DNA of 64,000 bases from Ceratodon purpureus (taxonomy: Eukaryota; Streptophyta; Bryopsida; Pseudoditrichales; Ditrichaceae), in the NCBI GenBank assembly GCA_014871385.1, contig CM026423.1, forward strand, positions 15,730,467 through 15,794,466. The letters run 5' to 3'. Below are positions 4,885 through 35,172 of the stretch, piece by piece. The translations under genes and the position numbers were made by a program. The first letter of the stretch is position 1. Each line of letters opens with the position of its first letter. The notes beneath the pieces were generated by a model. The model saw only the letters and a program-made list of their open reading frames with translations. It was not told the DNA's origin and searched no databases.

Positions 4885-5905
4885 CTCTCACACCAATGCT
4901 TGACACAATGTGTACCCTAAAACCATCTCCAATCTCCATTTAGCATACCATAGTCAAATGAAAATATACTAAACCCTAATTTATTACAACCTCAAAAATC
5001 ATGTCTTACAAAGCAATAAATACAAACTTATGTAGAAGTACAAGACAAGAGATGCATTGCACAATTGAATGAAGAATAAATGAACAATAATGAGTGGTAC
5101 GTACCTTCAACTGTTGGAGGATGAAATGTGCCTTCTCAAGTGTGGGAGAAGGGAAAAAGAGAGGAGGAGCCAAAATGAAGGTCGCAGTTCTGTGAGGGGA
5201 GGAGAGGAAAAAATCAGAGTGCATCACTTGGTTATCGCCCCCCGGGTCTCGGGGGCGGGTATTTAATTGGGAACTCTGGGGAACGCTTCGGGAACACATG
5301 GGGAACGGGCAGTGAAGGAGGAGCAGTGAACTGCGGGGAAGGAGTGTGCCTGCGAGCTCGAGCTGCGAGCTGCGAAGGGAGCGGGACAGGAGCGGGGAGC
5401 GGGACAAAGCAGGGAGCCGGAGCGGAAGACCAGAATGGGTCGGGCTGCAAGGTCAGGCGGGGGCTCAGGGCGGGGGAGGGTGCGGGCAGGGCGAGGGCGG
5501 GGCAGCCTCCGCGGACCCTCTCTTTTGCCCCGCCCTTAGTGGCGACCCAATCATGAAATTTCAAGTAGCAACACAACTTTTGAGGCCCCGATTCCTGGAT
5601 CACCCATCGGCCATGCCGTGACCAAACCCAGTACCACAAGAATTGGTTACAAACTCAATTACCAACCACCACCAATACATCCAGACTATCATATTCTGCC
5701 TCTCTCCAAAACCTAGAAGGACCATAATCTTATTCTTCACGTCAAAAACTTCGTGACCCTCTATCGCACTTACAGAAAGCTAGCGATCAGAACAATCGGA
5801 ACCCTTGCATCACCAGCAAACAAACGCAAACTTCACAAACTTTACCAGTTCAAAAACTCTGCTCAAACCTATCAAATCGCTCACAGGCTTTTGAAATACA
5901 CTCAC

Positions 5906-6043
5906 CAAATAAGTCTATAATCGTCGGTAAAGCAGACACAAGATCCAGATGAGCACCGACCAGCGTCAACACATCGTTATCGAAAGAATCTCGCCTCTGT
6001 AGAAGTGCCCCTTCCAGATTCCTCGCCCATGGCACACAAACCC
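5906..6043 (-). other. Exon-like fragment of an unrecognised host gene
   Basis: A 138-base stretch is open throughout in one frame and bounded by a good acceptor (CTGTGCAG) and donor (GTGAGT) on the minus strand. Its product includes RDSFDNDVLTLVGAHLDLVS and continues SALPTIIDLF. I do not recognise the family. In copy B the same exon is split by the 18-kb element. This is probably one exon of a duplicated gene fragment; no complete gene can be assembled here. Confidence 0.45.
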
Positions 6044-6128
6044 CTGCACAGTAACCAAAGCTGCGGAATCACAAGAGTCTCAACTAAGTAGCCATTTTGA
6101 ACAAAGAACAAAGATGCACATTCATGAG

Positions 6129-6866
6129 GGGGGGAAGCATGGTAAAGTGGACCACAAAAGTGCTTAGCTCATTGTCAATTTCTGCCATTCTTGCAAATAC
6201 TAGAAAAAGTGGCATCATCATTTACGAGATGTTGAGAAAAAGTTTGGATATGGAAAACAGACTTGGTTATAAAGAGTGTGGGGAAGTTCTAAACGGATTC
6301 GCGGCTTCTACGATGTCGAACGAGAACCGCAAAGTGGGACAAAGTGAAAGCTGTCATTTGAAAAAGTGATAAGAAGATGGGGAATTTTGTTCAGAAATCA
6401 CTTTCGATTTCGACGACACCTCTGTTTCTTAATTGCGGTTGTAGAAATGACCATGACTAAGTTCAAATGAAAGTTTGGGCGGACGAAAAGTATTTCAAGG
6501 ACGTTTTTAAAACACTGTTTTCTGTGAAACTTTTTGTGAGGTTTTTTTCACCGAACATTGTTTTTTAAATTGGAAAAAACATCCTCTATAGACAATAGAG
6601 GTGGCCAAGTGAAGAAATTAAGACTTTGGAAAAGTTCATTTTTATGATTTATAACTAGCAGTCAAATTAAGTTTCAATTGAAGAGGTTTCTTTTATGGAG
6701 ATGCCTAGAAGATACCTTATGACACCTTAAAAAGTAACTAAAATGCTCAAAAACTACACCAAAATGCTCAAAATCAGCTTTGAGCTTTGAAAAACAGCAC
6801 ACTTCATATTCTCTTCTTATTGATCACAAATTGCACTTTGTGGTCCACTTTACCATGCTTCCTCCC
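6129..6866. mobile_element. 738-bp non-autonomous TIR element inserted in copy A
   Basis: The ends are GGGGGGAAGCATGGTAAAGT and its inverted match beginning GGGAGGAAGCATGG, giving about 36 bp of inverted repeat that continues into GGACCACAAA. The flanking 4-bp duplication is TGAG, and copy B (around 35070) reads CATTCATGAGCTGC without the insert, which fixes both borders. There is no substantial coding frame. A relative lies at 40758-41494. The superfamily is unclear because a 4-bp duplication fits no common plant MITE class cleanly. Confidence 0.9.
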
Positions 6867-6970
6867 TGAGCTGCAAATGGCTCCATAAGACATCATCGCA
6901 GACTTCTCTTTAACGACTGCCTTAATTCTCGCTCTCAAAACAAACCCCCTTCACAAACAATCACCCGGAC

Positions 6971-15870: not shown

Positions 15871-16945
15871 ATATGTATCTCCATTTAGCATACCATAGTC
15901 AAATGAAAATATACTAAACCCTAATTTATTACAACCTCAAAAATCATGTGTTACAAAGCAATAAATACAAACTTATGTAGAAGTACAAGACAAGAGATGC
16001 ATTGCACAATTGAATGAAGAATAAATGAACAATAATGAGTGGTACGTACCTTCAACTGTTGGAGGAGGAAATGTGCCTTCTCAAGTGTGGGAGAAGGGAA
16101 AAAGAGAGGAGGAGCCAAAATGAAGGTCGCAGTTCTGTGAGGGGAGGAGAGGAAAAAATCAGAGTGCATCACTTGGTTATCGCCCCCCGGGTCTCGGGGC
16201 GGGTATTTAATCGGGAACTCTGGGGAACGCTTCGGGAACACATGGGGAACGGGCAGTGAAGGAGGAGCAGTGAACTGCGGGGAAGGAGTGTACCTGCGAG
16301 CCCGAGCTGCGAGCTGCGAAGGGAGCGGGACAGGAGCGGGGAGCGGGACAAAGCAGGGAGCCAGAGCGGAGGACCAGAATGGGTCGGGCTGCAAGGTCAG
16401 GCGGGGGCTCAGGGCGGGGGAGGGTGCGGGCAGGGCGAGGGCGGGGCAGCCTCCGCGGACCCTCTCTTTTGCCCCGCCCTTAGTGGCGACCCAATCATGA
16501 AATTTCAAGTAGCAACACAACTTTTGAGGCCCCGATTCCTGGATCACCCATCGGCCATGCCGTGACCAGACCCAGTACCACAAGAATTGGTTACAAACTC
16601 AATTACCAACCACCACCAATACATCCAAACTATCATATTCTGCCTCTCTCCAAAACCTAGAAGGACCATAATCTTATTCTTCACGTCAAAAACTTCGTGA
16701 CCCTCTATCGCACTTACAGAAAGCTAGCGATCAGAACAATCGGAACCCTTGCATCACCAGCAAACAAACGCAAACTTCACAAACTTTACCAGTTCAAAAA
16801 CTCTGCTCAAACCTATCAAATCGCTCACAGGCTTTTGAAATACACTCACCAAATAAGTCTATAATCGTCGGTAAAGCAGACACAAGATCCAGATGAGCAC
16901 CGACCAGCGTCAACACATCGTTATCGAAAGAATCTCGTCTCTGTA
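15871..16945. repeat. Duplicated locus, copy B (left part, with MULE right end)
   Basis: It matches 4933-6009 closely, including 624 bp of the MULE right end (15871-16495) and the flank beyond. It starts abruptly inside the MULE, so no other part of that element is present. It is cut at 16945/16946 by the 18-kb element and resumes at 34938. Confidence 0.92.
16937..16945 (+). repeat. Left target-site duplication of the 18-kb element
   Basis: GTCTCTGTA here is repeated exactly at 34938-34946. Copy A has a single uninterrupted site, GCCTCTGTA, with one base difference. Confidence 0.95.
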
Positions 16946-17025
16946 GGGGCGAGACTTGTATGCGAGCGGCGAGCGGAGAGCGGAGAGCGGAGAGCAAAGA
17001 TTTGGAGAGCGGAGAGCAGATAATG
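16946..17025. repeat. Left terminal inverted repeat of the giant element
   Basis: ATGCGAGCGGCGA is followed by repeats of CGGAGAG. It pairs with 34875-34937. Confidence 0.88.
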
Positions 17026-17133
17026 AGATCCTAAATCTAAAAACAGTAACTTTTATACTAAAAATAAATTCTATAATAAGAATATTCGAATATTCTCAGA
17101 ATATTCTGAAAACATTTCTAATTTTAGATAACT

Positions 17134-17227
17134 TATAACCGTGGACTGAGTTATCTTTTAAAAAATTATTATCCTATAACCGTGGATTGAGTTATCTCTT
17201 AAAAAAATATTATCCTATAACCGTGGA
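17134..17227. repeat. Left subterminal repeats, three copies of TATAACCGTGGA
   Basis: Copies start at 17134, 17175 and 17216 with an exact 41-bp period, and a weaker fourth lies near 17260. Inverted counterparts lie at 34755-34766 and 34819-34830 near the other end. Subterminal repeats of this kind commonly serve as transposase-binding sites; that role is inferred. Confidence 0.75.
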
Positions 17228-17269
17228 TTGAATTACATTTATTAAAGTTACTACCCTATTCCCGTGGTC

Positions 17270-18492
17270 TAAAGTAGCGCTTCAACAATAATTGATGAGT
17301 ACCTTCTATTTTCCTATGTGCTTATGGCTGGAAGTTTGGTACGATAGATAAATTAACTTTTATTCTCATCTCCATGGCATTCATCCTTTTTTTTTTTTTT
17401 TTTAATTTATTGAATTTGATACCCTCCCCATGTTCTTTCATTCTATCTATCTTCTCAATTCTTGCTCTATCTATCTATTCTATTCCATTATTATATTTTC
17501 CTTTCAGCAATGATTATTATTGCTATTTTATCTTCTAATGTGTTTGCTCATTTTCCTCTTATTTATTCTTTGTTAATTTTCAATTCTGAAATTGTTTTCC
17601 CATTTCAATTTTCCATTTGGGTCTTGTTTTCCCTTGCTGTACAAATACCCTGTTTGAGCTGCATTTCTTGACCTTTCCTTCCAACCATATACTTTTTTTA
17701 TTCATTTTTATTTTTATTTTTGTTATTTCTTATATTTTATTCTTTATAATTCCCATTAAGAATGTTTAGAAGATCCTCCTCTAGATCCGCCTCTATATTT
17801 GTTTTACTTATTATGCTTCGTATTCTCAAATTTAAATTTCAACTCTTATTTTAACTTTTAACTGTTATGCACCTTTTCAAATAAATTTTATCTTTTAGTC
17901 CTCTTATTATCGTTGGTCATTAATTATTTTATATTCTACATCCTTCTTCTTTCCTCGTGTCCTTCATCGTCATGTAACTATTCTTTTTAAATCATAGGTT
18001 TTATTGCATCTTTTGTTGCTCCAATTTTTTTTAAAAATTGTCCTTATTATTTTTTTTTTGAATTTGGTCTACCGTTATTTTTTCATTTTTTTATTTACAC
18101 TGTATGTGAGGAATTTTACAATCGTATCTTGAAATTATTAACTTCGTTGGACAAAATTATCTCTTACGGTAAAATCTACTATCCTTATTAGTATTCGTGC
18201 CCGGCAGTCCAATTCTAATAAAGGTCCCTTGTAGTTGTACAAACAATAATGTAGCACACACATTTGTAACGTTTGTATTAATTTCAGCCAAGTTTTTTGC
18301 GGCTTGGTTCATCAATGGCCATCATCACCATTTGGGTTCACATTTAGGATAACGTCTCACAATGGCACCAGGGTGATCTTTTCTATGGGTTATCTTTCTT
18401 GGTTATGGAGATTTTTTAGCGAAGTTTTAGATACAAGTTTAGTGAATGCTGATATACACTTCAGTGGGAGAGACTTTTGCTTAGATCAGAAG
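17270..18492. other. AT-rich leader region of the giant element
   Basis: It is T-rich DNA without a convincing gene. It probably contains the promoter and leader of the RING-like gene. The frame upstream of 18493 is open to 18304 but looks like leader sequence. Confidence 0.5.
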
Positions 18493-19968
18493 ATGACCGG
18501 GAAAAGGAAGAAGGGAGGCAAGCAACATAAAACTAGACAACACTATTCAGTGCAGCGTGCTTCCGAGGTTCCGGAGCTTAGCGACGATGCAACTAGGAGT
18601 GATGGAGAGGGAGACAGTGACAGAGTTTTCAGCACTGAGGAATTTGGCGACCCATTTGATCTTGGAGACATTGAAGAGGCTGTGCGTGATCGGATGCTTG
18701 TTGCAGCGCCAATGTTGAAGGGACGAGATGCTGAGTACGGAAAGGAGTTTTTCACAACTGTTGTTGGCTTATCAGATCGGGGGCCGTTGTTACGAGATGT
18801 ATCCAAGTGCTACGGTTTCATCTCAGACGAAGAAGTCACTGCTGTGTGGAAGAAAGGGGTTTCAAAGGGGCGCTATGATTTCGCTAGGTGTGAGGACGAG
18901 GAGCAACTGAAGCAGTTTGGTCAGCAATATTTCAAAGTATATGGTAATAGACCTCACAATAACTACTTTTGTCTTCGTTTTCTGAAGGCATGCTTTGCAA
19001 CTTTTGTGTATCAGAAGCCAGTGAACTGGTGTGCCGAGGCCTTGGACCGACACGAAGCCCGTCTAAAGAATGCGTGGCGAAATCCAACCAAAGTAGGGCC
19101 AGTGGCAACCAGATGTCAAGTCGAAGGTCTGATCAAGATAATCAGGGATTTATGTGGTAGGGGAGAACCTGATCTTGTAGTTCGAGAGCTTCAGGCAGCA
19201 TTGGCACAGGAGCAACAGAAAATTGATGTAGTCAGAGGTGTAGAGGAGCGTCTTCAGCAAATGCGACAAAGATACAACGATAGTCTGGATAGGATGAGGG
19301 TTGAATCCTCTGACATTGCTGAAGAACAGTTGAATAACAACTACGTGTCAAAACTGAAGGAGGCACGACAGATTCTACGCACCGAGGGTGCAACAGCATT
19401 ATATAAAAAAGCAGTTGAAGAGACAGAGGCACTGTTCAAGGAACTGGCTGACATGAGGGAATCTGATGCCCATACCAGGGACAGTACTGTACAATTGGAA
19501 CTAGCTATGGGTGTCGAAGTCCAAGCCTTAGAAGGTGCAAACGAAGAGCTTCAGATCTGTAAGGCAGCGGTCAATGTTGCAAGGGGCCACATGCTTACTA
19601 TAAAAACACCAAGAGTGTTCGAATACCCAAAGGTGTATTCTATTCCACCAGTGGGTTATCCAGGTAAAGAGGTTTGTGCATATTGTGGTCATGGATTCAT
19701 TTGGAAGGCAGCTGTTCTTTCCTCCTGTGGCTGTTTTCTTCACCCTCCGTGTGCAGCAGAGATGGTATCATGCGGGAGTTATCGTTGCAAGGTTTGCAAG
19801 GACCTACTGCTAGCATCTTCTCCGATTCATCTTGCGGAACCATGGGTTGCACAGTTTGGTGGGAAGTTAAATACTCAACAAGAAATCGAGTGTACAAGCT
19901 TTGTTGCTGTTTTGAAGGCTGTTAGTGATAGTGATAATGCTCCAACTGTTTCTAGAACCAAGAATTGA
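18493..19968 (+). CDS. RING-like zinc finger, coiled-coil protein encoded by the giant transposon
   Basis: I chose the ATG at 18493 because the product then opens with a basic stretch (MTGKRKKGGKQHKTRQ), a plausible nuclear signal; an ATG at 18304 in the same frame adds 63 atypical residues. The 491-aa protein has an acidic Ser/Asp region, a central globular part with Cys, Trp and aromatic residues, a long predicted coiled coil (about 235-390) and a C-terminal Cys/His cluster. That cluster reads CAYC, then CGCFLHPPC, then SCGSYRCKVC, a RING-like spacing that could bind two zincs. RING proteins often act as ubiquitin ligases, but the fit is imperfect. I do not recognise the full-length family. 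The gene converges on the methyltransferase-like gene across a GA-rich minisatellite. Confidence 0.75.
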   Translation: MTGKRKKGGKQHKTRQHYSVQRASEVPELSDDATRSDGEGDSDRVFSTEEFGDPFDLGDIEEAVRDRMLVAAPMLKGRDAEYGKEFFTTVVGLSDRGPLLRDVSKCYGFISDEEVTAVWKKGVSKGRYDFARCEDEEQLKQFGQQYFKVYGNRPHNNYFCLRFLKACFATFVYQKPVNWCAEALDRHEARLKNAWRNPTKVGPVATRCQVEGLIKIIRDLCGRGEPDLVVRELQAALAQEQQKIDVVRGVEERLQQMRQRYNDSLDRMRVESSDIAEEQLNNNYVSKLKEARQILRTEGATALYKKAVEETEALFKELADMRESDAHTRDSTVQLELAMGVEVQALEGANEELQICKAAVNVARGHMLTIKTPRVFEYPKVYSIPPVGYPGKEVCAYCGHGFIWKAAVLSSCGCFLHPPCAAEMVSCGSYRCKVCKDLLLASSPIHLAEPWVAQFGGKLNTQQEIECTSFVAVLKAVSDSDNAPTVSRTKN

Positions 19969-20309
19969 CAAGACCTAGTCCTATTATCGTAGAGCACGAC
20001 AATGCTCTATTTCAGTTGGAGTTTGGAGCAGCACTTAGCTATACATATATATAGTTTTACTTTTCGTACATCTTGCTAAACTACGAGGGGATACATTCTA
20101 GGCATATCTAAGACAGATTCATTTTGTGGACAAACTGCAAATACAATTGACTGAAGCAGAGCTTGTTAAGGATTAGGGTCGGTCATGTGGTCTAAAAAAC
20201 TTTAACGAAACTGATTTGCTTGTTAAGGCTAATAATTTCAAAAACTGATTATATATTGATACAATTATGTATGTTGAGAAATTAAAATACTGTAATGATA
20301 GGTGTTAAT

Positions 20310-21200
20310 GGACAGGGTGCAGGAAGTGAGGAAGGGTAAAGGGGTAGTCACAGGGAGTTAGGAGGAGGGGTGAGAGGGAGGGGTAGGGACAGGGAGTGAG
20401 GGGGAGGGGTGAGAGGGAGGGGTAGGGACAAGGAGTAAGGGGGAGGGGTGAGCGGGAGGGGTAGGGACAGGGAGTGAGGGGGAGGGGTAGGGACAGGGAG
20501 TGAGGGGGAGGGATAGGGACATGGAGTGAGGGGGAGGGGTAGGGACAAGGAGTGAGGGGGAGGGGTAGGGACAAGGAGTAAGGGGGAGGAGTGAGCGGGA
20601 GGGGTAGGGACAGGGAGTGAGGGGGAGGGGTAGGGACATGGAGTGAGGGGGAGGGGTAGGGACAGGGAGTGAGGGGGAGGGGTAGGGACAAGGAGTGAGG
20701 GGGAGGGGTAGGGACAAGGAGTAAGGGGGAGGAGTGAGCGGGAGGGGTAGAGACAGGGAGTGAGGGGGAGGGGTAGGGACATGGAGTGAGGGGGAGGGGT
20801 AGGGACAGGGAGTGAGGGGGAGGGGTAGGGACAAGGAGTGAGGGGGAGGGGTAGGGACAGGGAGTGAGGGGGAGGGGTGAGAGGGAGGGGTAGGGACAAG
20901 GAGTAAGGGGGAGGGGTGAGCGGGAGGGGTAGAGACAGGGAGTGAGGGGGAGGGGTAGGGACATGGAGTGAGGGGGAGGGGTAGGGACAAGGAGTGAGGG
21001 GGAGTTGTAGGGACAAGGAGTGAGGGGGAGGGGTGAGCGGGAGGGGTAGGGACATGGAGTGAGGGGGAGGGGTGAGAGGATGGGGTAGGGACAGGGAGTG
21101 CGGGTGGAGTGGAAGGGACAGGGAGTGAGGGGGAGGGGTGAGAGGGAGGGGTAGGGACAAGGAGTAAGGGAGAGGGTGAGAGGGAGGGGTAGGGCTTGGA
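20310..21200. repeat. G-rich 26-bp minisatellite
   Basis: About 34 imperfect tandem units of GGGACAAGGAGTGAGGGGGA plus GGGGTA fill the gap between two convergent transposon genes. One strand is almost purely G and A. The long minus-strand frames through it (Pro/Ser/Leu repeats) are open because of the repeat and have no other coding support. Confidence 0.93.
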
Positions 21201-21483
21201 ATTTCCGGATAGTGGCGAGAAGAGTTAATTGACGAAAAATCCGTGTTAACTAGTACTAAAGAAAAAAAATTAACAATCAAACAAGTTATATATGAATACA
21301 AAATAATAAAAGACAGAATTCATATAAAAGAGGTAGAAGTATATAGATTAGGAATTAATATCCGGAATCCAGAACTTTGCAGAGTCTTATGGTCCAAGTG
21401 CTATAGAGTCTCATGGTATAAATTCATCTTCACTCTCCGAGGCACTTACATCTAAAAAAATTCGAGCCCTGGGATCAAATCTC

Positions 21484-24400
21484 TCATGAGTAGATCATAG
21501 ATGACGACTCGCTAGTACTTTGCGAAGATTCTTCAGCCATTCGGGTTGCCAAATTCTCTGCGTAGCAAGGGAGTAGAAGGTCGGAGGTAGTTGGTGACTT
21601 GTATCCTGTCCAAGAGGTAATAGGACTCAAAAGGTCAGAGTTTGCGGGTGACCGGTACCCACTCCAAGAGCTCATCTGACTCAAACTGCAGTACAGTGTG
21701 AAAGTTAGTTTATATCTGATTCCGGAATTCAATATATGTAAAACGGATTATTTGACATAAAAGAACTTACTTACAGAGGTCAATTTGCTCCATGTCGGGC
21801 AATGGTTCTTCATCGTCCTCCATGGTAGCATCAAGAACCTCTGGGGCCGGGGCGATTTGAAGAGGTTTTAGTACCTCTTGAAAGATACCACTATCAGCTT
21901 CAAGGGCAAGTATCTGCCTGCCAGTATTCATGGCCGCGCGAATAGAAGCTCCTGAGAATGTTCACATAGTAAGGCGGTTGCTATGGAATAACGCAATAAA
22001 ATTAAATCGTAATATGAGTCAAAGGAAAAGGCCTCACCTGTTCCAGCAGTGAGGTCGACGACTATGCCTTCGTTTGGGCTAAGGCTCGTAATGAACAGTT
22101 CAAGTAGAGAAACTGATTTCTCTTTAGGACCCCTCCACATTGTCCCATCCTTTTTAACTTTCAGAGCTGTCTCCTCAGTTACAACGTTGTGGATACAATC
22201 ATCTTTCAGAAGGTTAACTTTGCCAAAGGCCCAAAACAGGGGTCGGGACGTATCACCAAAGTCTTCGGTTGCCTCAAAGAAAGCTTCAAAGATCGAACTA
22301 GCAGTGTAGCTCTAAACATCAGGGTCTGAAACGAGAAGCACACAAACGGTAAGAGATTTATGACTTGGAAAATAGAGATAAGGTATAGGGATAAATGAAA
22401 ACGAAAGAGTCGCTTACGTATTTGTCGGGAGTAGTGGGATGGGTTAAATGCATCGAGTTTACGATCATCCAGTCATCCTTGTGCTTCAGGTTGTTGTTGT
22501 TAAGCCAAGAGCCAATCTCTCTCTTCAGCTGCGGATTATCTGGGTGGAACAATAGAAGGGCCCCGTCGTCGTGCATAAACTTCCTACTGAAGCCTATAAC
22601 AATCTTCAGGAAATCAGGTACCAAGGCATTCCAAACTGGCACCGTCGAGGACTCGGTTGAGATTCCGGGGACAGGCATGCCATCTGGAATTTCAGCAATC
22701 ACCAAGTCAGCAGCCGGTCGAATATGATGAATTCCTTCGAAGAAAAATTGTCTTTCTGCTCCAACCTGAGAAGCATACAAATTCGTTAGAAGGTCCTTCA
22801 AAACCTATGCCGTTGCCGGCAGTGGCATAGAAGGTATGGAGTGGGGGTAGAGACTGAAGAGTCAGGGCCCTTACTTTGAGGGAGTAGGGAGTGAAAGGGG
22901 GGGATGGTAAGTGATTGAAAGAGAATAGGGAGAGAGAGGATCAGGGAGTGCACGCGAGGGAGGATGGGGAGAGAGAAGGTCAGGGAGTGACCGCGGTGGA
23001 AGAGCAAGAGAGGAAGGGACAGGGAGTGGTAGATAGAGTGAGACGGGTTAAGAAAGGGTTATGGAGTGAAAGGGATATAAGGGGGTAAGGAAGTGACAAG
23101 GAGTGACCGCGAGGGAATATGGGAGGAGGGTGGATTAGGGAATAGTAGTGAAGGGAGTGGGGATAAGGGATGGGACAGTAAGGGAAAGAAAGGGTGGTGG
23201 GAGAGAAAGGGACAGGGAGTGATGTGAGAGTTGGGGGAGTAACGTTGGGACAAGGAGTGACAAAAGGGAAAATTGAAACAATGTTTGTACCTCACATAGA
23301 AACGCCAAGGAATTATCGAATGAATTTGGGAACTTCTTATGCAGTTCCTTGTACTTAAGCATGCTGTGGAAAGAGTCATTAATAATGAGAACTCTTGAGT
23401 GACTCCCGGATGAAGTGACCCCTTGAGAGATGGCCATACTCTTTAGCGATGGTGGAGTAAAATCCCGAATTTTCTCGGCAGGCGCTTTCCCAGGCTGTAC
23501 TGTACCGCCAACTGATCGACCTCCAGATTGGCCTCGTCTCTTCTGCTGCGTTTCAAGGATGGAAGTGTCGTTTGGAGCAATCACTTCCTGCTCACCATGC
23601 TCACCCCTGCCAGTGCTCGCAATAGTATTGGCCGGGATGTCCTCGTCTTCTCCTTCATCCCCTGCCTCCATGGCTTTCCGCTTTGCACCACAGGTTTTGC
23701 CCTTCTTCTTAGCTTTAGGGGCAGCTTCGACTGGAGACTCAGAAGCAGACCCAGGAGGAGTACTCGCTTGGAGCTTTGCCAGGGCTGGCTGGAGGGAATC
23801 CCGCAGAGGAATATCGAAAGAAGGTGGCTTCATTGGTGGGCAGTCCAAATACCACCCACAACGCTCGTAATGGCATGCATCCCAAGCCTTCAATATGGCT
23901 TGGGTGTACATACACTCCGAGCCACTAGTGTCGAGGTAATTGGGGAAAAATGCTGGCACCTTTGACACGGCCTTCCTTGGAAACAAAATATACTTGAAGT
24001 AACGGTAGATGATCCTCCGCAAGGCCTGGTTGAAATTAGGTTGCTGCTGCGCTGTCTTGTTCTTGTGCACGGGATCTGGACCCTTAAATTCCCGAAAGAA
24101 TGCCGTGTCCCATAGATTACATCGCATCCCATCGACATAGTCAGATATTGTCTCTATAGGGTCCTGTCCATCCGAATTGTAGTTGATCTCCACACCCATA
24201 TCCTCCAGCACGCCATTGAAGTGCTCCTCTGCCTCCACAGTTAACTATAATAACAGGCAATAGGATGTAAGATAACAGGGCAATTAAACTTCTCGCATGA
24301 ACAAATATATTTTGCCCAACGCTCAACAGATATAAAGAAAGTTCCAGAATAGTTTCTATTTTTTAAATAATAATGTAATATTGAAGAGGAATTTGAAACA

Positions 24401-27400
24401 AACCTGCGCCCACCAAGTCGCACGTTGTAGCCATGTCGAGAATACAAGGTCCGAGAAGTTCTTCTTTGGAAATCGGTGAGACTCCCTCATTTTCTCAGAC
24501 ATGTTCCACCTCTGAAGCCATTTAATCTTCATTGGGGTTGGCATTGCTGAAATTGCAAAGTTGTAAAGTTTCTCCTTCAACATCTCAGGAGTGGAGAATT
24601 TTTCGTAATGGATTTTTATCTCTTCAAGAAAAGCTGATGTGAGTTCTGGATCAGCAATCGGAAGCAGTTTCTTCAACTCCGACTGTTGACTGTCCTCCAC
24701 CTTCTTTACCGCGTTAGACACCCATTCATCAACGGATTTTCGAGTCCATTGACGCTCCTCAGGATGCATCTCATAGAAATTGCGCTCTGCTGCTGCAGCC
24801 GCCTCTCCAAGCTCTTGCTGTAATCACGAAATTGATTTAGTTAAATATTAGCTTAGTTTATTATGTGAATTATAGATGAGTAAATGAGTACGTAAAATAG
24901 ACGAGACATACTTGATTGAGCACCGCATTAAGGGACTCCAGGGTCAATGTGTACCAGGTTCGTGTTCGACCAGCTTGTTTTGCTCTTGATGCTTCAAGCG
25001 CTGCCGTGGGTACAAGTCCCTCAAAGTACGAGAGAGGTTGTGGTGCAATGCTCTGAATGCGGTACAATTTGTGGACTATATTGCCTTTCACGTGAGACAT
25101 TTGGTTTCTCCTGCAATGAAACCAATTTGGATTTAGAATTTCAATGCATTTTTGCAAATAGAGATTTAAGAAAATGCTTGAGACATACTGAAAGTAATGA
25201 TTCGGAAAAGTACCAATTTACATCGTGAAGTGCTGTGACAATCGATGGCACGTCTCCTTTGGGGTCCAATATAATGCTGTCCACCGAGTAGTGCCATGAA
25301 ATGTCGCCTTTATGGAACTCCTCAATTATAGGCAATCAAGCCTGGAGTCGATGATTTCCATCCCATACCATAAACATTAAATTTGAAAAAACCTTCAAGT
25401 CTTCATCTGCCTAAAGTTTCATCTCGAATTCCTCATTTACTTGTCGCCACTCAGGGCTCCAAGACTCGGTGATATCACTTGTGACCACCCTTGAAAGGCC
25501 TTTTTCATCAACAGCCGCAACATAGAAAAAGCCATTGCCTTCCATGTATCCGCTCGAAATGAAATAGGAAGCAAGACTAGAGACATCACTCTTAAGATAG
25601 GGTCGAACAACTGGCAGTGAGATCATCCTACAAAGTCGGATACTTAATCGGCACTTCGACTTTGGCTCCCACTTCAATGCATCAAGCCGTAATGCTGTGT
25701 TCCCAGTGGCTGCCCCGACTAGATCATGAAGTTTTAAATTTACCTCGCTCCTCGTAAGAAGAATCGGATCTCCCTCTGCAAAACAAGGCAAAGACGTTGT
25801 TAGTGTCACCATCTAAAGTAATCCAGTTGCCGGCATTGGCACATAAATGTGCATTCAGTTATACAAAAATAAACTAAACAATATAATCAATAGCGTATCT
25901 GTGGCGCGACCCCAGGCAAAACCCTTATAAAAAACTTTTCGATGTGCACAGTCTCAGACCACGCAGGTACATCCCGAGGCGGTGTCGTTGCCGGCACCCC
26001 CTTGAGTGGTGTCGACGACGACACGACCCCAGTCGATGCCGGCACCACCTGAGGCGATGCCGGTACCGGCACCCCCTTGAGAGGTGCCGAACCCGGCACG
26101 GCCTCAGTCGATGGTGGCACCTCCTGAGGCGGTGCCGTTGCCGGCACCCCCTTGAGTGGTGTCGACGACGACACGACCCCAGTCGATGCCGGCACCACCT
26201 GAGGCGATGCCGGTACCGGTACCCCCTTGAGAGGTGCCGAACCCGGCACGGCTTCAGTCGATGGCGGCACCTCCTGAGGCGGTGCCGTTGCCGGCACCCC
26301 TTTGAGTGGTGTCGACGACGACACGACCCCAGTCGGTGCCGGCACCACCTGAGGCGATGCCGGTACCGGCACCCCCTTGAGAGGTGCCGAACCCGGCACG
26401 GCCTCAGTCGATGGCGGCACCTCCTGAGGCGGTGCCGTTGCCGGCACCCCCTTCAGAAGCATTGTTATATGCATGGGCGTGGAATTAAGCCATGCCATCA
26501 ACGGCATGACCACAACCGGCACGCATGGGATAATCATAAGGCTTTCTGAAAAGCATAGATGTCACCGACACTGGCCCTCCAAGGGCCTTCTAAATATTCA
26601 ATGCAGGTTTGTCATGGCAGTGCCGTCAACGGCACTGCCCTTCGCATCACAATAATCTAAAATCCTACGCCATATTACCCCAAGATGTTGACCAAGATTA
26701 GCTTGCATAAGAAAGTTATACTACTCCGTTCAGAGCACCGCCGTCACCGACATCGCTCTAGTAAAGCCTTCTTTGAGTATAAGTAGACACCCATAGGAGC
26801 TACGGCGTTACCGACAGCTCCCTTTATCGGGGTCCTCATAACCCAAAACCAGACTGACGCATACAGACATCCCCTTCCCAAGCAAATTCAAAAAACACCC
26901 AAATGAAACAATAGCAGCGTTTAGGTTAGAATCGAACCGCTCTGTTCTGGCTGCGTGGACTGAACGCCGTCATCTTCTACTCGCTCAGACTGTCTCTCGC
27001 TAAGCTCGTTGTCGACTTCCATGTCGGTCTTCTTGTCACCGTCCAGTGCGTGATCTTTGTCGACCTCCTCTTCGTGATCCCCGCTGACCTCTTCTTCGCG
27101 ATCCTTGTCGACCTCCATTGATGCCGACCCCGTCGGTCTTGGGCGCACAGCACGAGGTCCCTGCAGGAAGTAGAGAAGAGGACCGTAAGAATCTGCTGAT
27201 GTAAAGCAACCTAAACCCTAGAAATGCAAGTTCATTTGATAATACCTTCCTTTGGCAGCACTGTTCGCGGCGCTCACAAGCACGGGACCCTCAGCCACCA
27301 GCAACAAACCTTAATCCTAAGACGTTTTAGCTAGGTAAGCGATTCTCAGGCAGTGAGGAATGCCGGCGACGAAAAGAGAGAATATTGAGACAGATTGTAA

Positions 27401-27956
27401 AGGCAAAGATATTTTCTACTTGGATGGACTTGTGGTAGGACTAAACTTCACTATGCGGAAGTCCTTTCACCCTGTATACAATTATAATTTGGAGACGGGG
27501 TGGTCGGGATTGATACTGATAGTTGATGTGACATCCCCATATAATATGAAATGACAACCGTACCTTCGCATCATAATATAACCCACACTCACAGAAGCCA
27601 ATTCATTATTCAGTTTATACTCACTCAATCTTTCTCTACTCTATGCAATCACCTTAAATCAAATGATCACGGCTAGCTTAGCTTACCGGTGAGTCGTTAG
27701 TTTCACTTTTCTCAGAGAGAACTGTTTGTGCATTTCTTCCACGACGCCCGTACTGCTTTGTTGGAGTGTGCTCCCCAGAATGTCCATCCGCTCGAAACAC
27801 TACCTTTTCAAACTCTAGCACCTTTGTAATCCCATCCTTCATAAAACGCTCACTCTGTTTCTTTGCTCTTGCCATTCTACTACTTGCTAATGCTTTTGGG
27901 TTACTAAAATATATACCTTTCTTCCTTCTCCTACTCCTCTTGGTAGTTGCCTGCAT
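21484..27956 (-). CDS. Large multi-exon protein ending in a DNA methyltransferase-like domain
   Basis: Exons that join in consistent phase are 25775-25441, 25320-25214, 25110-24912, 24817-24404, 24244-23291, 22795-22418, 22311-22038, 21951-21771 and 21685-21484. Probable 5' exons are 27956-27687 (basic, nuclear-signal-like) and about 27160-26943 (acidic, EVDKD repeats); their junction to 25775 is the weakest. The product is about 1,180 aa. Near the C-terminus VIAEIPDGMPV sits where N4/N6 DNA methyltransferases have D-P-P-Y (motif IV). GPKEKSVSLLELFI follows, then IVVDLTAGTGASIRAAM and LALEAD, matching motif I (FxGxG) and the next acidic SAM-binding residue. Catalytic motif before SAM motif is the class beta order (DNA_methylase N-4/N-6 family). 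The Asp-Pro-Pro core is changed, so activity is doubtful. The middle 500 residues are unrecognised. It may protect, mark or read the element's DNA. Confidence 0.7.
22796..23290 (-). other. GA-rich intron of the methyltransferase-like gene
   Basis: This intron contains degenerate GGGACAGGGAGTGA-type units related to the 26-bp minisatellite at 20.3-21.2 kb, so the same repeat seeded two places in the element. Confidence 0.65.
25940..26455. repeat. 150-bp minisatellite within the methyltransferase-like gene region
   Basis: About 3.4 units share a core such as GGTGCCGTTGCCGGCACCCC. Both strands stay open through it, giving Pro/Val/Ala-rich or Arg-rich translations. I place it in an intron because skipping it gives the better join, but an exon is possible. 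Scattered copies of GCCGTTGCCGGC-like palindromes continue to about 26,830. Confidence 0.85.
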
Positions 27957-28454
27957 ATCACAGGGATACAACTAACCCAACACAGACACACATTGTAACT
28001 ATCCTTATATCACTAAGACCTAATACATGAGAGTCCTTCCATTAGTATGTAATATTGAATTGTTGCTGTAACCCTAATGTAGCTTCCGGCTACTTACCTT
28101 TAATTTAAATGGATGACCACTTGCCAGCAAGTCACGTCAGAAATAATTATGATTTAATTCCTATTTAAAACATTCTGTCTCTTTTAAACTAAAAAAGACG
28201 GCTTATACTAATCTAAGATAATACTTTAAAGTTTAAACAAATAGAATTTGCAACATGATGTGTTCATCAAAGCGACGGCTAAATGATAAAAATAAACTTA
28301 GAGTTCGTTCACTAACAGAAAATAAATCGTTCATTCCAATGTCGTTAATGCTGCCAACTCTGGTGGATCACATAAATTGATGAGCATCGAAGCAACATTC
28401 CTCTCATTCTAGAATTTCAAATTCTTTACTAAAGTACTATCCTCTCTCCTTGCA
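27957..28454. promoter_or_regulatory. Divergent promoter region of the methyltransferase-like and transposase genes
   Basis: About 500 bp of AT-rich DNA separates the 5' end of the minus-strand gene from the ATG of the plus-strand transposase. No specific element is recognised. The arrangement suggests co-expression from a shared bidirectional region. Confidence 0.5.
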
Positions 28455-31400
28455 ATGGCTCATCTCCCTGCAGACAGAGTGTTAGGCATGGCCGTGCTCA
28501 GAGCACATGGTGTTGGTATTCCACTTACAGTACGTGTAGATGAGGACGGGTTGGCACTTGTGACAGCACAACGCCTGAGCCTCAGATTTCACTACAGAGA
28601 GGAAACTGTTAGTATAGAAGAAGAGATTTATGACGAAGAGACAGATGAGATCACTCATACGCTAGATCAGGTTTCTGAGAAAGATGATGATGATAACAGG
28701 TTCTGGAATCTTTATCCTGGTAGGTACAGAGTTTATGGTCTCACAGAGTCCCAAATGCAAGCGTCCACAGAGATTCTAACTCCTCGTCGTTCATCTACTT
28801 GTACTATTCAGACTCCTCTGCCTCGTGATGTGAAGGTGAAGGTAGAGCCTCGCTTAGATACTCCTGCTGTGACGCCAGTCATATCCCTTTCATCAGACGA
28901 GGAGACTAGTCCTTTGAAAGCATCTTCTAATGTTCCAAAAGAGGTTGTAGAATCTAGGCCGCCCTATACATTTCCATTGAAATGTTCTAGTCTTTCCCAA
29001 CCCTCAACAGAGGAGAATGTTAGTGTAATTCCGCTGATTAGGAAACTTGCCGAGAGACCAGGGAGGAAAAACATTCTCAAAAAAATAGATTACTCTAGAG
29101 TGAAACACGAGAAGGTTGAGTACTTGCCTGCAGTGTTCAACGGTCCAGTAGTTTTTGAGCTTCCCCCAATTGGTGAAGGAGCTGCAAAGTTGCAGGCCAA
29201 GGCAATGCAAGGAATGGACAAGCGTTACGATGGCCATGTCTGGACCAAGACAAAGACCACCAACATCACTAACGACGTTGGCCTTTCGTTTCGCTACTCA
29301 GTCTGCGCTGGTTGGCTGCGATGCAACAACAAAGACTGTGACTTTCTGAACCGTCAGCCTCGAATTGCCAAGGTGAACGAGACGGAGTTTGAAGGATGTA
29401 CCCTTCAAGCGTTTCTGGTGGGTCAGCCGCCCCCAACAAGTTCAACACTGGTCTGCAAGGTATGTAAGGAACCTCCTGCATGTATTGCTACATGTGGAGC
29501 TAAGATTTATTATGTTTATGGGAATCTAAATCAGACTAGGGCATGTATCCATGTTGGGACTCATGATCACCCAGTCAAGGTAGGGGACTATAGGGACTCT
29601 AAGACAGAGATCAATAGCTTGATCGAAGAACAAGTTGAGAATACTCCTGGAGCTAAGAAGAGTGCCGTCGTGTTGGAGGCAAGCAAGGTCCTGATAGGCA
29701 GTTATCTTCTTCAGCCTGAAGATGCACCACCGAGGAAACTGACGATGGAGGAGCTTGTTCCCGTACTTGACCGCTGCAAGGACATGGCTTCTCCAAATAT
29801 CCGCAACAAGGTGATGACATTCAGGCAGCTGAGGAGGTACGGCGTCGTGGACGCCATCACCAAGCTCCGTGGTATCAATCTATGGGCCTATGTCCAAGAG
29901 AACAAGTTCCCAGGGCAGGGGGCTGATCTTGACAAGGTGTTCCTCTTCAAGATGTCTGAAGTTGGACCTGGAAGTGGCGTCGACTTGGTGAGAAGAATGC
30001 AGCCCGGTGGAGATCTGCAAAACGCATGGGTTATGTTTGATCATGTGAAAAGAGTAAAGTACTGGACCACGATGGCCTGCCACGTGTACGACTCAACCTA
30101 CTGTCGTGTCATGACGATTGCCACATGTGACATGCAGTCCGAGGATAGCGAAGCCCAAATTCTTTTTTGGCAAAACCTCAACCTAGTCATGGAAAGGAAT
30201 GGCGTCAAGGCGCCAAACTTCAAGGGCTTCATGGCGGACAGCGCTCAAGCAAACTGGAATGCAGTTCGAACTGTGTATGGAAATGGCAAGAAGGAAGACC
30301 CGATGGTGGACAGAGAGAGAACTTGCCTGTTCCACTGGACACAATCCATGGTTAGTCACACGGAGAAGCACATCCCCGAGGAGCTGTGGGAACAGCACAA
30401 GAAGATGTGTCACCACTACAGAAAAGCGCAGAGTATGGAAGAAGCGGATACCTTGTATAACGCCCTGCGCGCTTGGTGGGTATCCGCAGGAGTAGTGTCG
30501 GAGAAGGCCTTGAACAAACTTGAGCTCTGGCTTGCATTCTGGCATTACCGTATTCGACAGTGGGGAGGCTTCATGACCCAGGTACGACAATTCCTTTCTA
30601 AATTGTTTTCCTACTTCTTCAATTTAGTCTCTCTCGTCAAGGTTGATTTATCAATTCTAAAGACTTTGTGTGCTTTCCTTGCAGAAATTTACAGAGGAAG
30701 AATTCTCAGAAATGCCTTCATGCAACTTGGCAGAAACTGTCCACAACAAATGGCTCTAAGCTTCAGGAAACAACGGCCAGGATTTGTATGTAGCTACTGT
30801 GGACGACTTCGTCCGTGCATTTCTACAGGTTGTCAACTTTTACCAGTTCCTGAAAGGTGATGTGGGCGGCACAGGACCGACCAAGAAGGAACTCAAGCTA
30901 AGGAACGCTGAACGCAGGGCAAAAAAGACAGGAAACCCCATACTTTTAGAGGATGCGATGTTGGAGATGCCCGGTGCACATGAGTTCTGCACAAGACTTC
31001 CTCACATGCCAGGAGAAGAAGTGTTTGGGTCTATCAAGCGGAAGGCAGACCTTCCCATTGGAGCTGAAGAAGAATCACATTGTCCGGACAAGGTAAACTA
31101 TTCTCGTCCTAAAGGTTCAGGACGTGCTGTCAGGGCTCGCACTATGGCGATGCCTGTCATAGTGGAAGATGACATCGAAGATGAGACAGAGGTAGTTGAA
31201 GTTCAACCTACGGCAGCAACATCCCAAGATACCCCATCATCACCAGTGAACGAGAAGGGGGTGCGACATGTCAATGCAGTTGAAGAAACCAGTGTAAATG
31301 TCAGGGAGTGGCACATTTCGAGACTGCTCAAGACTTCTGCCAAGTGCTGCTGGGCACAGAGAGCAGTTACGAAAAAGAAGTGTACTGAGAAGATTGTAAG

Positions 31401-32178
31401 GGGTGCTAATTCGACTGCAGCGCCTACCTACACCGGAGTCTGGACCAACTTTCGCAGAAACATAGCTGAGAAGACGGAATTCTTCTTCTGCTCCGACGAC
31501 ATCGAGAGGTGTGTAAAGGGTACGAGACGCAGGTGGGTTGCCAAATACTCTAAGGACCAAGAGATGCCTCCGATTCCAGAGGTTTGGCCAGTGAAGCTAG
31601 GTACAAACCTAAATCTCACAGAAATTCGAGCACTTGAAGCGGCAGGGTTTCAACTCCCGAAGAAGATCCCCGTCTCCCCGAGACGCCTCTTCTCTGCTGC
31701 CCCGCCTCCTGCAGATCTCAGATCAGTACCTGTTCCTAGGTTAGCTGACCGCTACCCTGGTAAGAGAGACGGCAAGATGGTGAAGCGCACTGCCACTCGT
31801 CCGAATCCAGCGCAACGCCTCTCAATGGGCTCATCCGACTCCCTCAAAGCTCGCCTACGCTCCATCACTATGATACCTCACCCGGGCCATGGTTGCATCA
31901 TCGGGCTAGATTCCGGTGTTGCTCCAGCCATCACACAATACCACATCACCATCAGCTCCTACCCAGCTTGCACTTGCCCTGCATTCAGAAAGACCATGAC
32001 GAAGTTCAGAGGACGGACGCAATTCTCTTATTGCAAGCACCTTTATTACATTCTATTGAAGGTCTGCAATCGTGACCCTGATGCCGATCTTTTCATCCAT
32101 GCGCCCACTTTTAGTTCCAACGAGGTCAAGATAGTCCTAGAGAGTGGAATCTTGACTCACCCTTTGGCAAAGAAATAG
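28455..32178 (+). CDS. MULE-type transposase of the giant element (GCM/FLYWCH-like zinc region, DDE core, SWIM finger)
   Basis: Two exons, 28455-30581 and 30685-32178, join in phase 0 across a 103-bp GT-AG intron and give 1,206 aa. The first 240 residues are acidic and low complexity. A Cys/His region follows (about 284-372): CAGWLRCNNKDCDF, CKVCKEPPACIATC and CIHVGTHDH, resembling the zinc-stabilised DNA-binding fold of GCM/FLYWCH/WRKY proteins found in many MULEs. The RNase H-like core is at about 525-630: WVMFDHVKR (first Asp), FMADSAQANW (second Asp) and CLFHWTQSM. The C-terminus has a SWIM finger, CTCPAF...YCKH, near 1138-1157. This set is diagnostic for Mutator-like transposases. No stop or frameshift is seen, so it may be functional and is the likely mobiliser of the 18-kb unit. 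Confidence 0.88.
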
Positions 32179-32439
32179 TATCCAGAGTATTTTTTGTGGA
32201 CACGTATTCACCTAGTGGACGGTGGTTTAGGGTGAGGCTATGTCTTTTGTGATTGAATTTTTCCTTGTACTGAGTCAGCAATACAAATCTCGTATTGCCT
32301 ATTCCAATATAAAGGTTTTGTCATTCACATTTATTACATTGTGTAACAATAGCTTTTGCATTGGACAAGTGCCCTCTGTTCTTTCTATCCACTAACAGTT
32401 GCACTGTACTAATGCCATCAATACATATTAATAGTCATT

Positions 32440-34288
32440 TTATTCTTTGAACTTAATGCGTTTAGGTATGCCACTTGCATTTTCAGCATAATTAGCAACC
32501 TCCAGCTCAACTACAGGACTTGCTACATCCACATTTACTCTTGGCACTTGTCGTAGGTGGGGACGTTTCAACAATGGTCGAGCTACACTCTTTCCTCGCA
32601 ATGCTTCCCTAGAATAAGTCCCAGGTGGAATCTTCCCAACCTTGGAATATGCATGAGGTGGCATTGGCACAACCGGCTCCTCTTCAAGTACTACGAGACA
32701 ACTTGGGTCTTTAACAGCCAATGGTTGTCCTACCACGTCTAATGCTATATCGACGTCACCATTTCCAGTATGATCTTCAATGCACTCATTCTCCTCAGCT
32801 TCCCCCTCAACCTCTACAAACGGATGAAATGGGCCTTCCACATCATCCAATGAAAGAGCAGTATCCCTGGCTTCTTCCATAGCCTTAACACCTTCCTTCA
32901 GGAACTTGCTTCAAGAGGAGAATGAACAAAGAGGAAGAGACCTTCCGTTGCCACCACTTAAATATCCATGAGGTAGGTGCTTGGCGCCCTTGAAAGCTGG
33001 AATATATAATGTTAAACGGATTTCATCCTACTCAATGGGTGACTCGGATAATAAACATTATATTCTTTAATTAAGAAACAAAAAAAAATATAAATAAAAT
33101 AGTGCGTCACTTTAAAAAGATCGTTTAAAATTTTCAAAAGGAATAAAAAAAAAAAATTAAAGAAAAAACAAATGAAAAAATAAAGTCAAAGTTTGGAATT
33201 AACGCTCTAGATATAAAACTGAAAGAGGGTGTTTGTGCACCAAGAGAAAAACAGGGCCAGAAATGAAAATTGAAATGGGAAAACAATATAAGAATTGAAA
33301 AAGAAAAAAAAATAGAGGTGGACATGGAAGAAGTTTTGGGAAAACAGTGTGAAACGAAAGTTAAAAGAAAGTCATCAAAAAAATAAAAAATTAGAAATAA
33401 TAACCAAAGGTTGAAAATAGAGATCAAGATAGGCAACTCAAACGGGGTGTTCGCAAAATACCCTAACCCTATGACCAAAAAGGAAAATTGGAATGGGATA
33501 TTTAGAAAATTAAAAAGGTTGAAAATAAAACTCGAGGATGAAACTCAAAGAGGGGCGTGTCCACCACGGGAAAATAGGATCAACCAAAAAAATAAAATTA
33601 ATTGGAAATAGATACCAAACATGAAAATGAATTGAGAATATAAAGGATGAAAATGATAAAACAATTCATAAGATGAAACGGAAAAAAACTTAAGGCTGAT
33701 AGAAAGATAAAATGGAATAATAGATTATATTAGAAATAGTGAATTATAGTTCACTCTCTTCTACTCCTTATAATTTCACCTATGCTTCGGAGAGACCCAA
33801 ATACCTGGCCTTCGAGCAAGTATTCCTCCCGTCTGCAACCAAAGACAGGCGTTCCTAGTGTCACTTAGCACAGACCTCAACTCATCTAACTCACCACAGC
33901 TAAGTTCACCTAATGTCGCAGTCTACAATCTATCATTGTTAATTGGAGTAGCTAGAGACCAAGAGCTCTTGAAGATGTTCCAGTTCAAATTAAATCAATG
34001 TGCTTCATGGTCTACCTTGGAGGTCCAATGCCATCCAGTATATGAATCGTAATCCCACTTGGCCAGGCGAAGGCAAGCATATTCCGTACTGCTGTCAATC
34101 TCCCTCTTCCAAAGCTTCGAAACAGCACGAGCATTTTCAACATCCTGAAATGTGACTGTCGATGCAGGATTACAACATTCTGTTCTAGTAGAACCCACAC
34201 ACACCCAGAGGTTAGGGCCATTCGCCATTCGTTGAAGCAAATTCTGAAGAATTGTTTCACAAGCAATGACTTCAAGGGAATCGCTCAT
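32440..34288 (-). CDS. Small acidic accessory protein of the giant element (four-exon model)
   Basis: Exons 34288-34016, 33832-33805, 32996-32942 and 32908-32440 have GT-AG borders and phases that agree across all three introns. They give 274 aa from the first ATG to the stop. The N-terminal part is compact with Cys and Trp residues (ILQNLLQRMANGPNLWVCVG, later KWDYDSYTGWHW). The C-terminal part is acidic, then Pro/Val-rich, and ends in a basic motif (GIPKRIKFKE). I do not recognise it. Its place beside the transposase, inside the terminal repeats, suggests a role in transposition or in countering silencing, as accessory MULE proteins such as VANC have, but no homology is claimed. A shorter two-exon reading (109 aa) is also possible. 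Confidence 0.5.
32909..33804. other. A-rich intronic DNA near the right end of the giant element
   Basis: It is mostly A-rich sequence without independent coding support. It holds the 33- and 808-bp introns of the small acidic gene and its short third exon. Confidence 0.5.
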
Positions 34289-34874
34289 TCTATCACTACT
34301 CTGCCTATCAAATGTATTCTACAAATCGAAGCTCTGGTGGAGATGAAACCAGTGTGGTTTATATGGATATTTGCTTGACAGAAATGGCTCCAATTGATCT
34401 TATCGATTGAGAAGAATTATTGATATAGACAAACACTTTCTCAAGGAATATATCTCGGTTTACGCAGTCCATTATCATACAATTTTTTAATAATTCCAAG
34501 AAGTTTTGAAAGTTAATATTCTAGGCTTTTTGAAATATGCTTTTTCTTCGGATTCCAACTGTAAAGTGGCAATACCTATGACTGTACTTTCACAGTTTTT
34601 TAGAAATTCATAAGGAACCACAGAAAGTATATGTACTATGAAGAGAAAATGTACATATAACGATTCATATATTAATATGACATCATCATGACGTCAGCCC
34701 TAATTTTACCACTTCAATGTTATCATGGTTCATAAAGTAATCTGAGGTAATAAATCCACGGTATTACATACAGTAACTTTTTTAAAATCTATTAAAAGAC
34801 ATCAAAATTTAGTATTTTCCCACGGTTATAGGGTTCATTATTTTTCAAAAAAGATGTTGAAATGTCAAATTTCT
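34289..34874. other. Right subterminal region of the giant element
   Basis: No gene is seen. Inverted copies of the subterminal motif occur at 34755-34766 (TCCACGGTATTA) and 34819-34830 (CCCACGGTTATA). Confidence 0.65.
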
Positions 34875-34937
34875 ACTCTCTAATATCTGCTCTCCGCTCT
34901 CCGCTCTCCGATCGCCGCTCGCATGCTAACTTTCCCC
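34875..34937. repeat. Right terminal inverted repeat of the giant element
   Basis: CTCTCCG units, then TCGCCGCTCGCAT, end in CTTTCCCC. This is the inverted match of 16946-17025. Confidence 0.88.
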
Positions 34938-35172
34938 GTCTCTGTAGAAGTGCCCCTTCCAGATTCCTCGCCCATGGCACACAAACCCCTGCACAGTAAC
35001 CAAAGCTGCGGGATCACAAGAGTCTCAACTAAGTAGCCATTTTGAACAAAGAACAAAGATGCACATTCATGAGCTGCAAATGGCTCCATAAGACATCATC
35101 GCAGACTTGTCTTTAACGACTGCCTTAATTCTCGCTCTCAAAACAAACCCCCTTCACAAACAATCACCCGCA
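34938..35172. repeat. Duplicated locus, copy B (right part) and right target duplication
   Basis: It opens with GTCTCTGTA (34938-34946) and then matches 6000-6128 joined directly to 6867-6970. That makes it the empty site for the 738-bp element. Identity with copy A ends at about 35172. Confidence 0.93.

What the first reader, a model, noticed from the sequence alone, without database searches (positions are those of the whole stretch)
16937..34946. An 18-kb giant Mutator-like transposon with four genes and a paired empty site
The sequence shows inverted GC-rich ends, a perfect 9-bp duplication (GTCTCTGTA), and an uninterrupted version of the same site in duplication copy A (near 6000). The whole 17,992-bp block therefore moved as one unit. 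It carries an undamaged MULE-type transposase plus three further gene models. MULEs are normally a few kilobases long; one this large with a putative DNA-methyltransferase gene and a RING-like gene is, to my knowledge, unusual in plants.
Basis: partly seen in the sequence, partly recalled or inferred. Interest (0 to 1): 0.95.

Follow-up and report, generated by a model that had tools for sequence, protein, structure and literature searches.

The report
Damaged 18-kb MULE-like giant transposon
A block of about 18,000 DNA letters jumped into this place as one unit; it is an oversized jumping gene that carries, besides its own damaged mover enzyme, a damaged bacterial-style DNA-modifying gene and an intact zinc-finger gene, a combination of a kind so far reported from algae.

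Summary
The boundaries are right. A 17,992-bp insert (16946-34937) is flanked by a perfect GTCTCTGTA repeat, has matching inverted ends, and is absent from a 99%-identical copy of the site at 5993-6001 (one base differs there). The ends match in nested layers, so they belong to one element.

The transposase has a MULE layout (conserved acids, C-x2-H, SWIM-like finger, 9-11-bp duplication), but Pfam found no MULE domain in 22 of 22 family members scanned, while it does find an ordinary MULE elsewhere in the window. It is not undamaged: an in-frame stop removes 39% of it. The methyltransferase-like gene is broken too (a frame change supported by 4 of 4 relatives that cover it, two probable stops) and its catalytic motif is non-standard. 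The RING-like gene is open. The fourth gene has no support.

[quoted passage not shown] So: a new variant of a known kind. Whether the whole unit recurs elsewhere could not be tested; the genome search did not complete and the host was not identified.

The parts
16937..16945 (+). left target-site duplication GTCTCTGTA
   Evidence: repeat extends to 11 bp
34938..34946 (+). right target-site duplication GTCTCTGTA
16946..17002 (+). left terminal inverted repeat, begins GGGG; 43-nt core at 16960-17002
34882..34937 (-). right terminal inverted repeat, ends CCCC; 43-nt core at 34882-34924
17134..17267 (+). left subterminal repeats, four CCGTGG units
34753..34825 (-). right subterminal repeats, two CCGTGG units in inverted orientation
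17564..17733 (+). inner AT-rich inverted block, left arm
   Evidence: 131 of 173 positions identical
33143..33314 (-). inner AT-rich inverted block, right arm
18493..19968 (+). RING-like gene, one open exon; eight Cys/His ligands near its end
   Evidence: 13 relatives; ligands nearly invariant; Pfam and PDB RING matches not significant
20340..21176 (.). G-rich minisatellite between the two convergent genes
21767..25773 (-). methyltransferase-like gene, seven modelled exons: 25773-25214, 25110-24912, 24817-24404, 24244-23291, 22765-22418, 22311-22038, 21951-21767; in-frame stops at 25413-25411 and 25338-25336 (5' exon, itself without relatives) and a frame change between 22251 and 22227
   Evidence: N6_N4_Mtase 5.6e-5, below cut-off; PHROG methyltransferases 1.2e-6
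28455..30581 (+). transposase exon 1 (709 codons) with candidate catalytic D529, D595 and C624-x2-H627
30685..32178 (+). transposase exon 2: candidate third acid in NLAE, then in-frame TAA at 30757-30759, then SWIM-like C-x-C...C-x-H
32443..34311 (-). possible fourth gene (two separate open stretches), weak
   Evidence: reading frames only; no Pfam hit in two stretches
5993..6001 (+). empty site GCCTCTGTA in copy A
4932..6967 (+). copy A of the flanking duplication, with its own ~738-bp insertion
15877..35170 (+). copy B of the duplication, split by the 17,992-bp insert

Best explanation
A giant cut-and-paste DNA transposon of the MULE kind, or a divergent sister lineage of it, inserted as one 17,992-bp unit into one copy of a recent local duplication. 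Its transposase would bind the GC-rich ends and the inward CCGTGG repeats, cut the element out and paste it with a 9-11-bp duplication. It carries two accessory genes: a RING-like protein (plausibly a ubiquitin-ligase-like or DNA-contact factor) and a protein with a bacterial-type amino-methyltransferase fold, perhaps with a ParB-like front part, that may mark or bind the element's own DNA. This copy now has a truncated transposase and a broken methyltransferase gene, so it was either moved in trans by an intact relative or decayed after landing. Shown: insertion as a unit, ends, genes with relatives, lesions. Inferred: superfamily, ParB part, mobilisation in trans, accessory functions.
For: Duplication and empty site; nested inverted ends; transposase family with invariant D529, D595, C624, H627 in 22 aligned sequences, NLAE and SWIM-like finger in 3 of 3, weak IS256 match 0.0086, 2 of 22 members; MULE duplications 8-11 bp and SWIM fingers in passages of PMC6446971. 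Methyltransferase fold: Pfam 5.6e-5, PHROG 1.2e-6; exon order matched by P0135. RING-like ligands. Precedent for giant elements with this accessory gene and with pseudogenised transposase moved in trans: PMC12477816.
Against: Pfam MULE in 0 of 22 members although the same library finds the window's other MULE at 1.2e-10; profile comparison of the two found nothing; no plasmid match. No other copy of the element was seen. ParB part has no support from Pfam, PHROGs, PDB or phages. RING models not significant. No contig length in the three relative lists coincides between genes, so co-residence elsewhere is unproven.
Confidence: 0.7

Rival explanations
1. A one-off composite: a smaller MULE-like element that by chance trapped unrelated neighbouring genes, a Pack-MULE on a large scale.
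For: Co-residence of the three gene families was seen only in this window; the contig lengths listed for 43, 13 and 79 relatives do not coincide.
Against: All three families have many relatives of their own at 38-78% identity in metagenome data and none matches a known host gene family; the accessory methyltransferase is a known passenger of giant transposons; the lists give only the longest contig per protein, so the test is weak.
Confidence: 0.15
2. A giant transposon of another superfamily (for example KDZ, Sola-1 or an undescribed one) that resembles a MULE.
For: No Pfam MULE hit; Sola-1 and KDZ elements are giant and one Sola-1 carries the ParB-methyltransferase gene opposite the transposase.
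Against: The duplication is 9-11 bp; Sola has 4 bp and KDZ about 8 bp (both recalled, from no call); Pfam searches showed no other transposase family in the 22 members.
Confidence: 0.12
3. Copy A is a deletion: the 18 kb was ancestral to both copies and copy A lost it by recombination between the 9-11-bp direct repeats.
For: Gives the same empty site.
Against: Does not explain inverted ends exactly at the repeat nor a transposase inside; copy A was not shown to retain any piece of the element.
Confidence: 0.03

Closest known systems
Sola1-1_Ec32 of Ectocarpus (PMC12477816; passages seen)
   Same: Giant (21.5 kb) DNA transposon with an accessory gene on the strand opposite the transposase coding for a ParB-like plus N4C/N6A methyltransferase protein; transposases of such giant families are often pseudogenised.
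   Different: Classed as Sola-1; here a 9-11-bp duplication and a MULE-like transposase; no RING-like gene is mentioned in the passages seen; here motif IV is non-standard and the ParB part is unconfirmed.
Green and red algal transposons with similar ParB-methyltransferase proteins (cited in PMC12477816 as its refs 50 and 51, not read)
   Same: Same accessory protein type, giant size in the red alga (16-20 kb EnSpm with 4-5 ORFs, passage of PMC6431247).
   Different: EnSpm or other superfamilies as far as the passages tell; not MULE.
MULE / Mutator superfamily, including Arabidopsis Hiun/VANDAL21 with VANB and VANC (PMC6446971, passages)
   Same: Duplication length, terminal inverted repeats, SWIM-like finger, C-x2-H and acid layout, extra genes with possible anti-silencing role.
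   Different: About twice the size or more of MULEs in the passages seen; accessory genes unrelated in name; transposase not recognised by the Pfam MULE model.
Bacillus ParB-methylase Bce_0392 and phage methyltransferases (PMC5512222 passage; phage hits)
   Same: ParB plus amino-methyltransferase in one protein; the C-terminal SAM-binding part aligns with phage methylases (best listed 26.5%, E 2e-5).
   Different: The eukaryotic protein is far longer, intron-rich, with a non-standard motif IV.

Membership tests
MULE / Mutator superfamily | 8-11-bp target-site duplication | tested here: met
   9 bp, up to 11 bp ambiguous; range from PMC6446971
MULE / Mutator superfamily | terminal inverted repeats | tested here: met
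   43-nt core, 93%; within the 14-500 bp range of PMC6446971
MULE / Mutator superfamily | recognised MULE transposase domain (PF10551) | tested here: not met
   0 of 22 family members; positive control in the window 1.2e-10
MULE / Mutator superfamily | relationship to MULE or IS256 by profile | tested here: inconclusive
   IS256 0.0086 in the window protein, 2 of 22 members; hhalign with the other MULE found nothing
MULE / Mutator superfamily | DDE acids with C-x2-H between the second and third | tested here: met
   D529, D595, C624, H627 invariant in 22, NLAE in 3 of 3; assignment as catalytic is by analogy, recalled; the C-x2-H is shared with other superfamilies (recalled)
MULE / Mutator superfamily | SWIM zinc finger after the catalytic domain | tested here: inconclusive
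   C-x-C...C-x-H pattern in 3 of 3 but no Pfam SWIM hit in 3 proteins
MULE / Mutator superfamily | catalytic-domain fold | not testable with these tools
   structure prediction accepted no job
Amino-type (N4C/N6A) DNA methyltransferase | SAM-binding motif I | tested here: met
   DLTAGTG in the window and in relatives P0131, P0132, P0134, as DLTASTG in P0135
Amino-type (N4C/N6A) DNA methyltransferase | catalytic motif IV (D/N/S)PP(Y/F/W) | tested here: not met
   EIPDG in the window, EYPDG/EYPNG/DIPEG in the 7 relatives that matched the pattern I wrote for it, so that count is partly circular; aligned
ParB-methyltransferase transposon accessory protein | ParB-like domain | tested here: inconclusive
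   seen by eye (VWDGNHRLQA); no hit in Pfam, PHROGs, PDB, phages
RING domain protein | eight spaced Cys/His ligands | tested here: met
   C405 C408 C422 C424 H427 C430 C442 C445 nearly invariant
RING domain protein | significant match to a RING model | tested here: not met
   zf-RING-like in 5 of 14 members, best E 0.38; PDB RCHY1 0.56

The most novel reading that the evidence does not exclude
An undescribed lineage of giant MULE-like transposons carries as a fixed set a transposase that standard models miss, a RING-like protein and a ParB-methyltransferase-like protein with a conserved non-standard catalytic motif; the set binds and marks the element's own DNA and removes host silencing factors, so that even copies with a dead transposase keep moving in trans.
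Probability: 0.3. Interest if true: 0.75.

Novelty: new variant of a known kind. Interest (0 to 1): 0.5.

Why it matters
If the set is fixed, the ParB-methyltransferase accessory would be shown to have spread across transposon superfamilies, which points to a shared advantage such as marking or licensing the element's own DNA. It would also show that a MULE-type machine can move about 18 kb, well above sizes in the passages seen, and it gives a dated insertion (younger than about 0.85% divergence) on which moving in trans can be tested.

Tried and rejected
Rejected: 'undamaged transposase'; a splice that skips the stop (the next acceptor-like CAG after it, read, leaves the frame). Considered: that the lesions must predate the insertion. 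A rough estimate gives 1.26 stops expected in both genes since the duplication and a chance of 0.13 for three or more, so decay after landing is not excluded. Considered and dropped: a viral origin. Five scans of viral contigs with transposase, RING and methyltransferase queries found no relative. One relative of the transposase lies in a contig filed under a cyanobacterial metagenome bin (L001), which has an exon 2 in another frame as here and is probably eukaryotic contamination (inference). Contig lengths of the relatives were compared between the three genes without a shared value. No Rfam match. Phage search with the 75-bp array: no match. Nine paper searches were answered; none listed a giant MULE with these genes, and the library lacks most subscription papers. 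Passages seen in PMC9033089 and PMC7385966 added nothing decisive.
Full report
Boundaries. GTCTCTGTA occurs exactly twice in the window, at 16937-16945 and 34938-34946. The repeat alone is weak evidence (4 of 100 shuffles also had two), but it sits exactly outside inverted ends whose alignment scores 34 against at most 15 in 2,000 shuffles. The core is 43 nt, 93% complementary. The direct repeat extends by one base on each side to CGTCTCTGTAG, so the duplication is 9-11 bp; 9 leaves the symmetric ends GGGG...CCCC and an insert of 17,992 bp.

One element. Behind the terminal repeats come inward-pointing CCGTGG repeats on both sides (four left, two right) and an AT-rich inverted block with 131 of 173 positions identical. 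CCGTGG also occurs three times deeper in the element and seven times outside it, so only the clustering at the ends is telling. This layered match is what the two ends of one element look like and is not expected of two unrelated elements.

Empty site. Self-comparison shows a local duplication: copy A 4932-6967 and copy B 15877-35170. Without the insert and copy A's own ~738-bp insertion, the copies differ by 11 mismatches in 1,288 compared bases and 2 gap columns. Copy A has the site once, reading GCCTCTGTA. The insert is therefore younger than the duplication, unless copy A lost it.

Transposase. Two exons, 28455-30581 and 30685-32178. Of 7,990 candidates scored, 43 proteins are related (E up to 0.001), 38-74% identical, mostly over exon 1. 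In an alignment of the window and 21 of these 43, D529, D595, C624, H627 and W628 are invariant. Exon 2 carries the NLAE motif and a C-x-C...C-x-H pattern in 3 of 3 sequences. Reading these as the DDE acids, the C-x2-H and the SWIM finger of MULEs is by analogy from recalled knowledge. Against it: Pfam MULE matches 0 of 22 members, though it finds an ordinary MULE at 2054-2836 of this window with 1.2e-10; a profile comparison with that MULE found nothing. The only profile hint is IS256, 0.0086, in 2 of 22 members. A TAA at 30757-30759 ends the protein after 733 of 1,206 residues, behind the NLAE motif and before the finger. The relatives P0001 and L001 read on through this place, so intact relatives exist.

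Methyltransferase-like gene. Seven exons were modelled on the minus strand, 25773-21767. Exons 2-7 match Pfam N6_N4_Mtase with 5.6e-5, below its cut-off, and PHROG methyltransferases with 1.2e-6; PDB's DpnA reaches only 0.049. Of 3,958 candidates, 79 proteins are related to exons 4-5. P0135, one open frame of 656 residues, matches exons 4, 5, 6 and 7 in order, which supports the model. Motif I is present (DLTAGTG). Motif IV is EIPDG in the window and EYPDG, EYPNG or DIPEG in seven relatives; my pattern was written for that form, so the count is partly circular. Four of the 79 hold a (D/N/S)PP(Y/F/W) string; in P0128 and P0129 it lies elsewhere, in the exon-4 region, and P0092 and P0121 were not inspected. 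Damage: the four relatives P0131-P0134 change frame between window 22251 and 22227 (4 of 4), and the 5' exon holds TAG at 25413-25411 and TGA at 25338-25336. That 5' exon has no relatives in hand, so these two stops are probable only. Its ParB-like motif was seen by eye and found no support in Pfam, PHROGs, PDB or phages.

RING-like gene. 18493-19968, one open frame. Thirteen relatives of 7,996 candidates, the best 78% identical over 99%. Eight Cys/His ligands are nearly invariant, but no RING model is significant. A fourth gene at the right end rests on open frames only.

Mechanism. Most likely a cut-and-paste element whose transposase recognises the GC-rich ends and the inner repeats. This copy could not make a full transposase today. 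Giant families in Ectocarpus often have pseudogenised transposases, and its authors infer mobilisation in trans (PMC12477816, passages); the same may hold here. Decay after landing is also possible: 1.26 stops are expected in the two genes since the duplication, and three or more have a chance of 0.13. The accessory proteins may protect or mark the element; this is inference.

Known relatives. [quoted passage not shown] those references were not read). Size comparison rests on passages: Pack-MULEs up to 7 kb and 16-20-kb EnSpm in a red alga (PMC6431247), arthropod MULEs 1.4-10.0 kb (PMC13359780). MULE traits come from passages of PMC6446971, methyltransferase motifs from PMC8885841, bacterial ParB-methylase from PMC5512222.

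What is missing. Other copies in the host genome, the fold of the transposase (four refusals) and the identity of the host. Contig lengths reported for the relatives of the three genes do not coincide, so a fixed gene set is not shown.

Noticed in passing
2054-2836 (-): An ordinary MULE transposase piece with a clear Pfam MULE domain (1.2e-10), outside the giant element.
   Followed up: partly
12356-15079 (+): Open frame of 907 codons with DDE_1 and Tc5-type DNA-binding domains, between copies A and B.
   Followed up: no
about 6129-6866, and about 40758-41480: Small transposon-like insertion in copy A with inverted ends around AAGTGGACCACAAA, and an 84-89% relative elsewhere.
   Followed up: partly
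20340-21176: Strongly G-rich minisatellite between the tails of the two convergent genes; GC skew 0.75 at 20-21 kb.
   Followed up: no
25966-26457: 75/150-bp tandem array upstream of the methyltransferase exons.
   Followed up: no
46216-47412 (-): AICARFT/IMPCHase open frame of 398 codons without visible introns, possibly a retrocopy.
   Followed up: no
35820-36452 and 1-105: Higher-order tandem repeat with a 258-bp period; a 99% identical piece of it lies at the window start.
   Followed up: no
58370-58635 / 62622-62887: Inverted pair of 266 bp, 98.9% identical.
   Followed up: no
107-500, 5152-5545, 16097-16489: A repeat of about 395 bp present inverted at the window start and in both copies of the duplication, about 95% identical.
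   Followed up: no
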